From Pseudomonas syringae pv. cilantro (GTDB taxonomy: Bacteria > Pseudomonadota > Gammaproteobacteria > Pseudomonadales > Pseudomonadaceae): 64,000 nt of DNA. Position numbers and translations under genes: made by a program. This document shows positions 26,751 through 31,278 of this stretch, in pieces (the first letter of the stretch is position 1; every line of letters starts with the position of its first letter). The stretch spans positions 391,771 through 455,770 of the forward strand of contig NZ_LGLN01000033.1 of NCBI RefSeq assembly GCF_001293775.1. Direction: 5' to 3'. The notes beneath the pieces are model-generated. The model was not told where the DNA came from, did no database searches, and was given only the letters and a program-made list of their open reading frames with translations.

Positions 26751-27836
26751 ATGAGCAAGCGAGCCTTTAACTTCTGCGCAGGTCCTGCTGCGCTTCCTGA
26801 AGCTGTTCTGCTGCGTGCCCAGGCGGAGCTCCTCGACTGGCATGGCAAAGGCCTGTCCGTCATGGAGATGAGCCATCGCAGCGACGAGTTCGTCTCCATC
26901 GCCACCAAGGCCGAGCAGGATTTTCGCGATCTGCTGTCCATTCCCTCCAATTACAAAGTGCTGTTCCTGCAAGGCGGCGCCAGTCAGCAGTTCGCACAAA
27001 TCGCGCTGAACCTGCTGCCCGAAGACGGCAAGGCCGATTACATCGATACCGGCATCTGGTCGCAGAAGGCAATCGAGGAAGCCTCGCGCTATGGCACGGT
27101 CAACGTCGCAGCCAGCGCCAAGGCCTACGATTACTTCGCCATTCCCGGCCAGAACGAGTGGAAGCTGTCCAGCGACGCTGCCTACGTTCACTACGCACCA
27201 AACGAAACCATTGGTGGCCTGGAATTCAACTGGATTCCGCAAACCGGTGACGTGCCGTTGGTGGCCGACATGTCTTCGGACATTCTTTCGCGTCCGGTGG
27301 ACATCTCGCGTTTCGGCATGATCTACGCCGGTGCGCAGAAGAATATCGGCCCGAGCGGCGTCGTGGTGGTGATCATTCGCGAGGACCTGCTGGGTCGCGC
27401 GCGTTCGCTATGCCCGACCATGCTCAATTACAAGGTCGCGGCCGACAACGGCTCGATGTACAACACGCCGCCGACGCTGGCCTGGTATCTGTCCGGGCTG
27501 GTCTTCGAATGGCTCAAAGAGCAGGGCGGCGTCGAGGCCATCGGCAAACTGAATGACATCAAGCAGCGCACGCTGTATGACTTCATCGACGCCAGCGGGC
27601 TGTACAGCAACCCGATCAACAAGCCCGACCGCTCGTGGATGAACGTCCCGTTCCGTCTGGCCGACGCCCGCCTCGACAAGCCGTTTCTGGCGGGGGCCGA
27701 GGCGAACGGTCTGCTCAACCTGAAAGGTCACCGCTCGGTCGGTGGCATGCGCGCGTCCATCTATAATGCGGTCGATCTCAACGCGGTCAACGCGTTGGTG
27801 ACCTACATGAAAGACTTCGAGAAGGAGCACGGCTGA
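26751..27836 (+). CDS. serC: Phosphoserine aminotransferase
   Basis: A 361-residue PLP enzyme that makes phosphoserine from 3-phosphohydroxypyruvate and also serves pyridoxine synthesis. The start MSKRAFNFCAGPAALPEAV and EMSHRSDEF are typical, and the PLP lysine is in YAGAQKNIGPSG. GAGAG precedes the ATG at 26751. The stop overlaps the pheA start by one base (TGATG), indicating translational coupling in the serC–pheA–tyrA–cmk–rpsA operon. Confidence 0.97.
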   Translation: MSKRAFNFCAGPAALPEAVLLRAQAELLDWHGKGLSVMEMSHRSDEFVSIATKAEQDFRDLLSIPSNYKVLFLQGGASQQFAQIALNLLPEDGKADYIDTGIWSQKAIEEASRYGTVNVAASAKAYDYFAIPGQNEWKLSSDAAYVHYAPNETIGGLEFNWIPQTGDVPLVADMSSDILSRPVDISRFGMIYAGAQKNIGPSGVVVVIIREDLLGRARSLCPTMLNYKVAADNGSMYNTPPTLAWYLSGLVFEWLKEQGGVEAIGKLNDIKQRTLYDFIDASGLYSNPINKPDRSWMNVPFRLADARLDKPFLAGAEANGLLNLKGHRSVGGMRASIYNAVDLNAVNALVTYMKDFEKEHG

Positions 27837-28930
27837 TGTCCGAGCAAGAACTCAAGGCGCTTCGCGTCCGTATCGACAGCCTCGATGAAAAGGTCCTGGA
27901 GCTGATCAGTGAGCGCGCCCGCTGCGCTCAGGAAGTGGCCCGTGTAAAAATGTCCTCGCTGGCAGAAGGCGAGGTGCCGGTGTTCTATCGCCCGGAGCGT
28001 GAAGCGGCGGTCCTCAAGCGGGTCATGGAGCGTAACCGTGGTCCGTTGAGCAACGAAGAGATGGCGCGGCTGTTCCGCGAGATCATGTCTTCCTGCCTCG
28101 CCCTTGAACAACCGCTCAAGGTTGCCTATCTCGGTCCTGAAGGCACGTTTACCCAAGCGGCGGCCATGAAGCATTTCGGGCATGCGGTCATCAGTTTGCC
28201 GATGGCGGCCATCGACGAGGTGTTCCGTGAAGTGGTTGCCGGTGCAGTGAATTTTGGCGTGGTCCCGGTGGAAAATTCCACCGAAGGCGCGGTCAATCAC
28301 ACGCTGGACAGCTTTCTCGAACACGACATGGTGATCTGCGGCGAAGTCGAGCTGCGTATTCACCACCACTTGCTGGTGGGCGAAAGCACCAAGACGCAAA
28401 GTATTTCGCGTATCTACTCCCACGCCCAGTCGCTGGCCCAGTGCCGCAAGTGGCTGGACGCGCACTACCCGAATGTCGAGCGGGTTGCTGTGGCCAGCAA
28501 CGCCGAAGCCGCCAAGCGGGTCAAGGGCGAATGGAACTCGGCGGCCATCGCCGGTGACATGGCGGCGGGGCTCTATGGTCTGACCCGTCTGGCAGAAAAA
28601 ATCGAGGACCGTCCGGATAACTCGACGCGCTTCCTTATCATTGGCAATCAGGAAGTCCCGCCCACCGGTGATGATAAAACGTCGATCATTGTCTCGATGA
28701 GCAACAAACCGGGCGCGCTTCATGAGCTGCTGGTGCCCTTCCACGAAAGTGGCCTGGACCTGACGCGTATCGAGACCCGTCCGTCGCGCAGCGGTAAATG
28801 GACCTACGTGTTCTTCATCGACTTCGTCGGACATCATCAGGATCCCCTGGTCAAGGCCGTACTGGAGAAGATCAGCCATGAAGCCGTTGCCTTGAAGGTG
28901 CTGGGTTCTTACCCCAAAGCAGTCCTTTGA
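27836..28930 (+). CDS. pheA: Bifunctional chorismate mutase/prephenate dehydratase (P-protein)
   Basis: A 364-residue P-protein for phenylalanine synthesis. An AroQ-type chorismate mutase domain (1-90, LRVRIDSLDEKVLELISERA) is followed by prephenate dehydratase (about 95-270; VAYLGPEGTFTQAAA, PVENSTEGAV and the TRF motif in NSTRFLII) and an ACT domain (about 278-360; NKPGALHELL and IETRPSR), where phenylalanine acts as feedback inhibitor. It starts within the serC stop codon. In most Pseudomonas hisC follows; here it does not. Confidence 0.96.
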   Translation: MSEQELKALRVRIDSLDEKVLELISERARCAQEVARVKMSSLAEGEVPVFYRPEREAAVLKRVMERNRGPLSNEEMARLFREIMSSCLALEQPLKVAYLGPEGTFTQAAAMKHFGHAVISLPMAAIDEVFREVVAGAVNFGVVPVENSTEGAVNHTLDSFLEHDMVICGEVELRIHHHLLVGESTKTQSISRIYSHAQSLAQCRKWLDAHYPNVERVAVASNAEAAKRVKGEWNSAAIAGDMAAGLYGLTRLAEKIEDRPDNSTRFLIIGNQEVPPTGDDKTSIIVSMSNKPGALHELLVPFHESGLDLTRIETRPSRSGKWTYVFFIDFVGHHQDPLVKAVLEKISHEAVALKVLGSYPKAVL

Positions 28931-28941
28931 AGGGAGCATTA

Positions 28942-28995
28942 ATGAGCGATTCCTTTTCTGATCTGCCGGGTTATCAGGTGCGTGCGCGTGGTTGA
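28942..28995 (+). pseudogene. 17-codon ORF in the place of hisC (remnant or leader)
   Basis: GGGAGC precedes an ATG at 28942 that opens a 17-residue frame, [17 protein letters not shown], ending TGA at 28993-28995 and overlapping the likely tyrA start. In other Pseudomonas a full hisC (about 370 codons) lies here. The beginning MSxxFxxL and the ending ARG are compatible with the two ends of HisC, so an in-frame collapse is possible, but the match is too short to prove. It may still serve to carry ribosomes to tyrA. Confidence 0.45.
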
Positions 28996-30592
28996 AGTGA
29001 TTTCAGGGCGATCGGCCCGGCCCGTTATCGGCCGTCTGGTGGTGGTGGGGCTCGGCCTGATCGGCGGGTCTTTTGCCAAAGGCGTTCGCGAGAGCGGTCT
29101 GTGTAGCGAGGTGGTCGGCGTCGATCTTGATCCGCAATCGCGTGTGTTGGCGGTAGAGCTGGGCGTTGTGGATCGTTGTGAAGCGGACCTTGCTGCCGCG
29201 TGCAGCGGTGCCGATGTGATTCAGCTGGCAGTCCCGATACTGGCGATGGAAAAACTCCTCGGGCTGCTGGCGTCCATGGAGCTTGGCAATGCGATTCTGA
29301 CCGATGTCGGCAGTGCCAAAGGCAATGTGGTCCGGGCGGCGCGCCTGGCGTTTGGCGACGTGCTGCCGCGTTTCGTGCCCGGGCATCCGATTGCCGGGTC
29401 CGAGCAGAGCGGGGTGGAAGCGTCCAATGCCGCGTTGTTCCGGCGTCACAAGGTGATCCTTACACCGCTGCCCGAAACCGACCCTCAGGCTGTCGCGATT
29501 GTCCACCAGCTGTGGGCTGCGCTGGGTGCCGATGTCGAGCACATGCAGGTCGAGCGTCACGACGAAGTGCTGGCTGCCACCAGTCATCTGCCGCATTTGC
29601 TGGCCTTCGGCCTGGTCGATTCGCTGGCCAAGCGTAACGAGAACCTCGAAATATTCAGGTACGCCGCTGGCGGCTTTCGTGATTTCACGCGGATTGCAGG
29701 CAGCGACCCGACCATGTGGCACGACATCTTCATGGCTAATCGCGAGGCGGTGTTGCGCACGCTGGACACGTTCCGCAGCGATCTGGACGCCTTGCGCGAT
29801 GCTGTAGATGCAGGCGATGGTCCGCAATTGCTGGAAGTGTTTACCCGTGCCAGGGCTGCACGCGAACATTTCGGCCGGATTCTTGCCAGTCGCGCCCGAG
29901 TCGAAACCACTGCTGTGGACGGTCCGGTTGCCCGGGTTCGCGCCGGAGATGGCGTCAGCCATGCCATCAAAGGGCCGGTCGATGAGGCTTCTGCAGTGTT
30001 TTTCATGGTCGCAGTGTCGATCAGCGAAGGCTGCGACCTGCTTCTCGACGATGTCGGTATCAGCGCTGCCTGTGCGGGTGCCGTCGATATTCTGCGCCTC
30101 ATGGGGGCGGATATCGTGCTGCAAAACGTCCGCGAACGGGCGGGCGAATCATTGGCCGATGTGCATGTGCGTTCGGCTCGTTTGAAGGGCGCGGATATTC
30201 CAGAGGCGCTGGTGCCGATTGCACTGGATATGTTTCCGGTGCTGCTGGTTGCCGCAGCGTTCGCAGAAGGGCGTACCATTCTGCGCGGAGCACAAGCGTT
30301 GCAGGCTGAAGAGGCTGAGTGCGTCAAACTGATGGCCGACGGTCTGCTGGCCCTTGGCATCGATGTCGAACAGGTGCTGGATGGCATCATTATTCAAGGC
30401 GGTATGCCGGGGGGCGGCGAGATCGATGCTCGCGGCGACCCGCGTGTCGTCATGGCATTTCGAGTGGCATCATTACGGGCTTCGGCGCCCATCCGTATTC
30501 ACGATTGCGCGGATGCCGCCACAGTATTTCCCCATTTTCTGGCGCTGTGCGCTCAAGTCGGTATGCGTGTAGCGCAAGAGGACAAAAAGTGA
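28982..30592 (+). CDS. tyrA: Prephenate dehydrogenase fused to a truncated, degenerate EPSP synthase half-domain
   Basis: 536 residues. TyrA (about 1-300) is complete: cofactor motif [29 protein letters not shown] and [17 protein letters not shown] with the catalytic His. The usual partner is a full AroA of about 430 residues; here only about 215 remain. The whole first part with GDKSISHR is missing, and the rest ([15 protein letters not shown] onward) has lost NPTRTG (now SAACAGA), KESDR (now EEAEC) and DHRIAM (now DPRVVM). The catalytic-type Asp is still present (ALDMFP). EPSP synthase activity is therefore unlikely. The start is GTG at 28982, or GTG at 28988. The stop overlaps cmk. Confidence 0.85.
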
Positions 30593-31278
30593 AGATCAAA
30601 CCCCCCGTTATCACCATCGACGGACCTAGCGGTTCCGGAAAAGGCACGGTTGCAGGATTGCTGGCCAGACGGCTGGGCTGGTGCCTGCTTGATTCCGGTG
30701 CGCTCTACCGATTGCTGGCCTTCGCCGCACGTAATCACGGCGTCGACCTGACTAATGAAGAAGCGCTCAAACTGCTTGCCGCCCATCTGGATGTTCAGTT
30801 CGAGGCGACGAAAGGCGGGCAGGGCCAGCGCATCATTCTTGAGGGTGAGGATGTGACGCAGGCGATCCGCAATGAGCAGATCGGCAGCGGCGCTTCGCAA
30901 GTCGCGTCCCTGCCTGCAGTGCGCGACGCCCTGCTGCTGCGCCAGCGCGCCTTCCAGGAAGAGCCGGGGCTGGTTGCGGATGGACGCGACATGGGAACGG
31001 TGGTTTTTCCGGAAGCGCCATTGAAGATATTCCTCACTGCGAGTGCCGAGGAACGTGCGCGCCGCCGTTACTTGCAGTTGAAGGCCAAAGGCGATGATGT
31101 TAGTCTGTCGAGTCTGCTAGATGAGATATGTGCACGCGACGAGCGTGACACCCAGCGAGCGGTAGCGCCGCTCAAGCCGGCGCACGACGCCATACAGCTG
31201 GATTCCACTGAGTTGTCCATCGAGCAGGTGCTGGAACGCATTCTGAGCGAAATCGCGCTTCGCGATATTGCCGGGTGA
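30589..31278 (+). CDS. cmk: Cytidylate kinase
   Basis: A 229-residue CMP/dCMP kinase. The P-loop is [12 protein letters not shown] near the N-terminus, followed by the CMP-binding insert and [20 protein letters not shown], typical of Cmk. The GTG at 30589 overlaps the TGA of the preceding gene, indicating coupling. Together with rpsA downstream this is the standard cmk–rpsA pair. Confidence 0.96.

What the first reader, a model, noticed from the sequence alone, without database searches (positions are those of the whole stretch)
28982..30592. TyrA fused to a half-size, degenerate EPSP synthase domain
In other Pseudomonas this place holds a fused prephenate dehydrogenase–EPSP synthase of about 740 residues. 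Here the product has 536. TyrA is complete, but about 210 residues of AroA, including GDKSISHR, are missing and the rest has lost NPTRTG, KESDR and DHRIAM while the hydrophobic pattern and reading frame are kept over about 215 residues. Loss of this much with retention of an open, fold-like frame suggests the half-domain is no longer an enzyme but still selected, perhaps as a regulatory or folding module for TyrA. It also predicts a separate aroA elsewhere, possibly altering glyphosate response.
Basis: partly seen in the sequence, partly recalled or inferred. Interest (0 to 1): 0.78.

Follow-up and report, generated by a model that had tools for sequence, protein, structure and literature searches.

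The report
Dead EPSP-synthase half kept on TyrA
In one branch of Pseudomonas the tyrosine-pathway enzyme TyrA carries one of the two lobes of a broken shikimate enzyme; described in 2005 as a recent truncation, it is kept by about a dozen species as an intact, selected fold.

Summary
Window 28982-30592 encodes a complete TyrA joined to one lobe of EPSP synthase (AroA). It is not new: Song et al. 2005 (PMC1173090) reported the ~200-residue deletion in P. syringae, a stand-alone replacement gene and the idea of a new regulatory domain, but called it recent. The tools add five things. (1) The deletion is 213 residues, in frame, and removes one lobe between two hinge segments; the rest (strand 1 plus C-lobe) models alone at pLDDT 88 and matches EPSPS over 207 residues. 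(2) It occurs in 11 of 398 genus genomes, plus P. avellanae. All 11 have a full stand-alone aroA, as do their nearest relatives that keep the full fusion, so redundancy came first. (3) It is not a pseudogene: no stop or frameshift in 12 sequences, lobe length fixed at 197, omega 0.157 (0.122 at tips; 0.100 in full fusions). (4) The hydrophobic core is kept; catalytic residues are mostly lost. (5) A heptad face on TyrA's last helix, kept in intact fusions, is lost here and convergently where AroA was deleted, so the lobe seems tethered, not docked. Whether it has a function is open.

The parts
28982..29887 (+). TyrA (prephenate/cyclohexadienyl dehydrogenase) part, residues 1-302; conserved core starts about 29030
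   Evidence: Pfam PDH_N and PDH_C; model matches 4wji, Z 31.8 over 291 residues; omega 0.043 in the half clade
29834..29899 (+). Last TyrA helix face, residues 285, 292, 299, 306 (spaced by 7): usually G, V, K, Y in intact fusions; E, A, R, R here
   Evidence: 37 distinct full fusions: G 37, V 30, K 35, Y 37; 12 half sequences: 0 at each; 14 AroA-less TyrA: 1, 0, 0, 0
29885..29956 (+). Linker, residues 302-325, predicted disordered; carries the only indels of the region seen among the 12 half sequences
   Evidence: pLDDT under 50; -3 residues in G308, +4 in P. avellanae; omega 0.228 over 21 codons in 10 of 12 sequences
29948..30589 (+). Single EPSP-synthase lobe, residues 323-536: retained N-terminal strand plus C-lobe
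   Evidence: PF00275; lobe alone pLDDT 88.4, pTM 0.88; 3roi Z 30.1, rmsd 1.8, 207 residues, chain 12-433; omega of the 197-residue C-lobe 0.157
29960..29980 (+). Deletion junction (about residues 327-333), where 213 residues between the VPGD and VPAD hinge segments were lost in frame
   Evidence: Junction scoring with the least diverged half members (G347, G079) against full-length sisters (which stopped with an error after three of five reference sequences); the more diverged members place it less clearly
30589..31278 (+). cmk (cytidylate kinase; named from gene order and its conserved start, no family search run on it); its GTG start overlaps the stop of tyrA by four bases (GTGA)
   Evidence: Sequence; GTGA at the same place in the 11 half sequences printed
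27836..28930 (+). pheA (chorismate mutase/prephenate dehydratase), upstream neighbour; no hisC2 between it and tyrA
   Evidence: Pfam CM_2, PDT, ACT; ORFs

Best explanation
The protein is a working TyrA with a catalytically dead, self-folding single lobe of EPSP synthase on a flexible tether. Order of events: an ancestor of a wider Pseudomonas group gained a stand-alone aroA; this made the AroA half of the TyrA-AroA fusion redundant; then, most likely once, in the ancestor of the P. syringae-like clade, an in-frame deletion of 213 residues between two similar hinge segments cut out one of the two lobes. The remaining lobe kept its fold (predicted) and has been under purifying selection since. 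Presence, order and selection are shown by sequence; that TyrA is active is inferred from its conservation. The reason for the selection is inferred: most likely constraint in cis. The lobe is always translated with TyrA and just before the overlapping cmk start, so stops, frameshifts and misfolding variants that would harm TyrA or cmk expression are purged. This predicts a protected hydrophobic core and freer catalytic and other polar sites, as found. The lobe probably no longer docks on TyrA as an intact EPSPS did.
For: Own genome: three PF00275 places, MurA, a full aroA and this half (which is MurA and which aroA follows from score and motifs). Census: the middle lobe is present in 370 of 398 genus genomes; the 28 without it are 11 half-domain and 17 without a fused AroA match, of which 2 are incomplete assemblies without a TyrA match either. 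Stand-alone aroA: 26 of the other 26, against 90 of 370 (Fisher 1.5e-15). The nearest full fusions G018 and G382 carry a 90% identical aroA with similar neighbours. Full-against-half split supported at 99 on two DNA trees. Lobe exactly 197 residues and no stop codon in 12 of 12. Codon models. Positions conserved in full-length lobes that are invariant in the 12: hydrophobic 46 of 69, polar 13 of 38 (Fisher 0.002). Fold. TyrA helix face. cmk overlap.
Against: Pure cis constraint does not easily explain why none of the 12 has dropped the lobe, while TyrA without any AroA part arose at least twice elsewhere, probably three or four times; but the number expected is small. The last 39 codons are weakly constrained (omega 0.469). 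Burial was judged by residue type, not from coordinates. The stem and internal branches have higher omega than tips (0.91, 0.198, 0.122), which could mean remodelling for a new role; TyrA shows the same trend more weakly (0.19, 0.055, 0.036), so it counts for neither side. The full-fusion yardstick (0.100) is not clean: all 8 full sequences in that fit come from genomes that also have a stand-alone aroA, and two of them (G194, G162) have altered KESDR motifs, so it may itself be slightly relaxed. No expression or protein data.
Confidence: 0.5

Rival explanations
1. The lobe has been co-opted: it now does something of its own, such as oligomerising TyrA, holding a partner enzyme, or sensing a metabolite, and is selected for that.
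For: Tip-branch omega 0.122 is close to the 0.100 of the lobe in full fusions. Retained in 12 of 12 sequences with fixed length. Some residues are fixed to a new state in all 12, e.g. R364 to C and D446 to E. Faster change on the stem (omega 0.91, 2dlnL 5.4 with one degree of freedom). Suggested by Song et al. 2005.
Against: Polar positions conserved in the full-length lobes are hardly better kept (13 of 38) than variable polar ones (9 of 34), so no clear new functional patch is seen. Eleven shifted positions are not striking when about half the sites are invariant. The stem effect is partly shared by TyrA. The TyrA docking face is gone.
Confidence: 0.35
2. Ordinary pseudogene in slow decay that happens to be still open, as the 2005 paper implied.
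For: Catalytic motifs lost; omega of the lobe is higher than TyrA's and about 1.7 times that of the full-length lobe in a two-class fit (0.168 against 0.101); the last 39 codons have omega 0.469.
Against: omega=1 rejected (2dlnL about 450), also on tips alone (222) and internals alone (122). No stop in 12 sequences although about 13-19 would be expected for 500-709 neutral substitutions in a simple simulation. Both indels fall in the linker, none in the lobe.
Confidence: 0.05
3. The lobe still helps EPSP synthesis, for instance by complementing another protein in trans.
For: EPSPS chains of about one lobe are in the PDB (1p88, 216 residues; 3ti2, 228 residues), so a lobe can be handled alone.
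Against: No match to the fused-type middle lobe at E 1e-45 in the 11 half genomes; K443 and H487 lost in 12 of 12 and R447 in 11 of 12, though R488 is kept in 12; a complete aroA is present in all 11.
Confidence: 0.02
4. Assembly or annotation artefact.
For: The window's genome is in 102 contigs.
Against: Same lobe length in 11 genus genomes, four of them in 2-9 contigs, and in P. avellanae.
Confidence: 0.01

Closest known systems
P. syringae TyrA with truncated AroF (EPSPS) domain, Song, Bonner, Wolinsky and Jensen 2005, BMC Biol 3:13 (PMC1173090; passages seen)
   Same: Same deletion, stand-alone replacement gene, and the suggestion that the remnant might be exploitable as a new regulatory domain.
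   Different: They saw one species and called the truncation recent (once as N-terminal, once as C-terminal); their Figure 6 legend gives pseudogene status to an unnamed box in P. syringae, presumably this one. Here it is clade-wide, one lobe exactly, under purifying selection, with the TyrA docking face lost.
Bifunctional TyrA-AroA fusion of Pseudomonas (NCBIfam NF011381); the A. baumannii EPSPS structures 5bs5/5buf are numbered 325-756, as the second half of such a chain
   Same: TyrA part, linker position, C-terminal lobe, cmk next downstream.
   Different: Lacks the 213-residue middle lobe and most catalytic residues; scores 705 against a cut-off of 902.
Enolpyruvyl transferase fold (EPSPS, MurA)
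   Same: One lobe of the fold: EPSPS Z 30.1, MurA Z about 20-21.
   Different: One lobe only, so no inter-lobe active site.
EPSPS chains of about one lobe in the PDB (1p88/1p89, 216 residues; 3ti2, 228 residues)
   Same: A single EPSPS lobe treated as a unit.
   Different: By match range (from residue 21 or 29 to about 217 of the stand-alone AroA query) they are the other lobe; that they are laboratory constructs is recalled, not read.

Membership tests
TyrA (prephenate dehydrogenase) | PDH_N and PDH_C domains above Pfam cut-offs | tested here: met
   122.5 and 102 bits against 26.5 and 22
TyrA (prephenate dehydrogenase) | Conserved [15 protein letters not shown] and TSHLPH segments | tested here: met
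   All of these positions invariant over the 39 aligned sequences; their catalytic roles are recalled
EPSP synthase (AroA) | Two lobes, full-length aroA model above cut-off | tested here: not met
   TIGR01356 120.6 bits, cut-off 287.25, model positions 219-414 of 415
EPSP synthase (AroA) | Catalytic motifs GDKS..HR, NPTR, KESDR, DHRIAM | tested here: not met
   First absent; the others altered in all 12, although single residues such as R488 stay
EPSP synthase (AroA) | Fold of the C-terminal lobe | tested here: met
   Z 30.1 to 3roi, 207 of 214 model residues, rmsd 1.8; predicted model only
Bifunctional TyrA-AroA fusion (NF011381) | Score above the equivalog cut-off | tested here: not met
   705.2 against 902
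Pseudogene | Neutral evolution or broken frame | tested here: not met
   omega 0.157, no stops or frameshifts in 12
Pseudoenzyme (non-catalytic, functional) domain | Catalytic residues lost, fold kept | tested here: met
   the fold is a prediction
Pseudoenzyme (non-catalytic, functional) domain | A demonstrated non-catalytic function | not testable with these tools
   Needs biochemistry

The most novel reading that the evidence does not exclude
A single lobe of EPSP synthase, cut out precisely at its hinge, has been turned into a new non-catalytic module of the tyrosine-pathway enzyme in a whole clade of Pseudomonas, tethered rather than docked, and is selected for that role.
Probability: 0.35. 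Interest if true: 0.75.

Novelty: already known. Interest (0 to 1): 0.48.

Why it matters
The arrangement was described in 2005 as a recent truncation. The new evidence says that half of a two-lobed enzyme has persisted as a selected domain, predicted to fold, through the divergence of about a dozen species. That makes it a natural case for separating two things that are hard to tell apart: a domain kept because it does something, and a domain kept because it must not misfold while fused to a needed enzyme inside an operon. The four TyrA residues that change together when intact AroA is lost also give a testable map of how the two enzymes may touch in the normal fusion.

Tried and rejected
Assembly error: rejected by recurrence. 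Neutral decay: rejected by codon models. A second, independent half-domain elsewhere in the genus: none found in the draw of 398; the 28 genomes without the middle lobe are the 11 half-domain genomes plus 17 without a fused AroA match (one search names 20 of the 28, the other 8 follow from their absence in its list of matches). 'Burst then stasis' in the lobe as proof of a new function: pairwise and branch estimates suggested it, but TyrA shows the same trend more weakly, so I do not rest on it. Junction at the motif ISHR: the automatic alignment A1 placed the half members' VSH against ISH; junction scoring with the least diverged members preferred keeping AroA strand 1 with an exact 213-residue deletion. 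For more diverged members (G000, G205) the scores are flat or prefer other places, so the junction cannot be set to the residue.

Half-clade monophyly: 99 on three-gene and two-gene DNA trees, but the protein tree of TyrA alone leaves the clade as two weakly supported groups (66 and 65). One search flagged one TGA in the G079 match; it lies upstream of the RLVVV motif, and the 519 codons after it are open.

Rows dropped: for the helix-face count, 14 of the 15 genus genomes with AroA-less TyrA were parsed (G159 did not match my pattern), and two sequences from broken assemblies were counted apart (both keep G, V, K, Y). For the conservation classes, 20 of 27 full-length rows were used, those with exactly 197 lobe residues; of the 22 genus rows parsed there, the other two had 196 and 198, and one further genus row (G409) was not parsed. 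The linker, strand and 39-codon window estimates use 10 of 12 sequences, without G308 and P. avellanae. The stand-alone aroA codon fit uses 10 sequences and cmk 9. The branch fits use 12 half and 8 full sequences. For the Fisher test the two genomes without a TyrA match were left out.

Literature: eight searches of the held library gave only PMC1173090 as directly relevant; PMC3411725 was seen in passages; the other papers were seen as listings only. The library lacks most subscription papers, so later work may exist.

Full report
What is there. Window 28982-30592 (+) is one open frame of 536 residues. Residues 31-287 match both TyrA domains; residues 327-520 match the EPSP-synthase family, but only its positions 230-414 of 417. 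It lies between pheA and cmk, and the cmk start overlaps its stop as GTGA. The genome has two other family members: MurA and a complete stand-alone aroA at G000:C70.

Prior art. Song and colleagues (2005, PMC1173090; passages seen) state that P. [quoted passage not shown] Elsewhere they call it a recent C-terminal truncation, and the legend of their Figure 6 says that dotted boxes in P. syringae mean pseudogene status; that the box is this domain is my reading. No later treatment turned up in eight searches of the held library.

Distribution and order of events. In an even draw of 398 genus genomes, the middle lobe is found in 370. The other 28 are 11 with the half-domain (G000, G396, G326, G205, G107, G069, G225, G392, G308, G347, G079) and 17 with no fused AroA match; two of these 17 are incomplete assemblies in which TyrA is not found either. 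P. avellanae BPIC 631 also has the half-domain, which makes 12 sequences. A stand-alone aroA of the same kind is present in 116 of 398: in all 11 half genomes, in all 15 near-complete genomes without fused AroA, and in 90 of the 370 with a middle lobe (Fisher 1.5e-15). The nearest full fusions, G018 and G382, hold a 90% identical copy with similar neighbouring genes. Redundancy therefore came before the loss. DNA trees separate the 12 half sequences from the full fusions with support 99, consistent with one deletion; the TyrA protein tree alone is weaker.

The cut. Ten of 11 full-length relatives measured have 732 residues from the RLVVV motif to the stop; ten of 12 half members have 519, so 213 residues are missing. 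The two exceptions differ only in the linker (-3 in G308, +4 in P. avellanae), and the lobe from FFMVA/LFMVA to the stop is exactly 197 residues in all 12, as in 20 of 22 full-length genus rows parsed. In the least diverged members the best junction keeps the first AroA strand and resumes 213 residues later, near the paired VPGD and VPAD segments. AlphaFold gives most of the lobe high confidence inside the full protein, with a disordered linker at 302-325 and a weak C-terminal tail, and pLDDT 88.4, pTM 0.88 for the lobe alone. The lobe model aligns with EPSPS 3roi over 207 residues at 1.8 A, from chain residue 12 to 433, and with MurA from about residue 13. One complete lobe remains and the other is gone. 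EPSPS has two globular domains that close on each other around substrate (PMC3411725, passages), so a single lobe cannot form that site; of its own catalytic positions K443 and H487 are lost in 12 of 12 and R447 in 11 of 12, while R488 stays in 12 (their catalytic roles are recalled).

Selection. Codon models on the 12 sequences give omega 0.157 for the lobe, 0.043 for TyrA, 0.029 for cmk (9 sequences), 0.030 for the stand-alone aroA (10 sequences), and 0.086 for the same lobe in 11 full fusions. With omega fixed at 1 the best log-likelihood in a scan of kappa is -3572.9 against -3347.7. In a branch model with 8 full-length relatives, omega is 0.100 in full fusions, 0.91 on the stem, 0.198 on internal and 0.122 on tip branches of the half clade; fixing tips at 1 costs 111 log units and fixing internals at 1 costs 61. 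TyrA shows 0.041, 0.19, 0.055 and 0.036 in the same classes, so the decline from stem to tips is only partly special to the lobe. Relative to TyrA, the lobe's omega is about 2.4 times in full fusions and about 3.4 to 3.6 times in the half clade outside the stem: moderately relaxed, far from neutral. One caution: all 8 full relatives in that fit also have a stand-alone aroA, and G194 and G162 have altered KESDR motifs, so the yardstick may be slightly relaxed itself. Constraint is uneven; the last 39 codons have omega 0.469.

What is selected. Of positions conserved in full-length lobes, 46 of 69 hydrophobic ones are invariant in the 12 half sequences, against 13 of 38 polar ones (Fisher 0.002); variable polar positions are invariant in 9 of 34. 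This is what selection for the fold alone would leave. It does not exclude a function carried by a surface that this count cannot see.

The partner's side. In the first comparison only two TyrA positions separated the half clade cleanly from 22 full fusions, 292 and 299, both in the last helix. Extended to 37 distinct full fusions, including a few from outside the genus, the helix carries G285 in 37, V292 in 30, K299 in 35 and Y306 in 37; in the 12 half sequences none of the four is kept; in 14 TyrA proteins without any AroA the counts are 1, 0, 0 and 0. The four are spaced by seven, so they lie on one face. On the TyrA tree the AroA-less proteins fall in a clade of ten (support 99) and in a second group (96) that also holds one full fusion, G409, so there were at least two losses, and three or four if a lost fusion is not regained; the change is convergent. 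My reading (inference) is that an intact AroA packs on this face, and that the single lobe no longer does. This speaks against the lobe being a folding support that TyrA needs in the ancestral way.

Verdict. The feature is real, ordinary in origin and already described; a pseudogene label is wrong for this clade. I favour a dead lobe held by constraint in cis (0.5) over co-option for a new role (0.35). Only bench work on TyrA with and without the lobe can settle it.

Noticed in passing
window 28931-28995: hisC2, which lies directly upstream of tyrA in two other genus genomes (L008, L023), is absent here; a short frame beginning MSDSF follows pheA and may be the stump of its start. Loss of hisHb at this place is reported in PMC1173090.
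   Followed up: partly
L086 (G409), L095 (G194), L096 (G162), L007 (G020): Full-length fused AroA with altered catalytic motifs (KESDR reads KQTDR, RDCDR, RDSDR, RESGR) in genomes that also hold a stand-alone aroA (split over the contig ends in G020): possibly earlier stages of the same loss.
   Followed up: partly
L130-L144, L008, L023: Fifteen genus genomes have TyrA with no AroA part; in the 14 parsed it ends 9 to 24 residues after the HFG-x-(I/L)-L motif of the last helix.
   Followed up: yes
L083 (G389), L084 (G089), L085 (G093), L087 (G397): Broken fused frames, at a run of N in L083 and at apparent frameshifts in the others; they look like assembly errors rather than decay, not examined further.
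   Followed up: no
L002 (G000:C70): The stand-alone aroA scores best against E. coli-like EPSPS chains in the PDB (3nvs, 7tm4; that they are E. coli-like is recalled), the fused Pseudomonas AroA against A. baumannii, Coxiella and CP4 chains: a replacement of one EPSPS type by another.
   Followed up: partly
window 30473-30589: The last 39 codons of the lobe have omega 0.469, well above the other windows (0.08-0.19), next to the cmk start; low synonymous change there may reflect translation signals of cmk (not measured).
   Followed up: no
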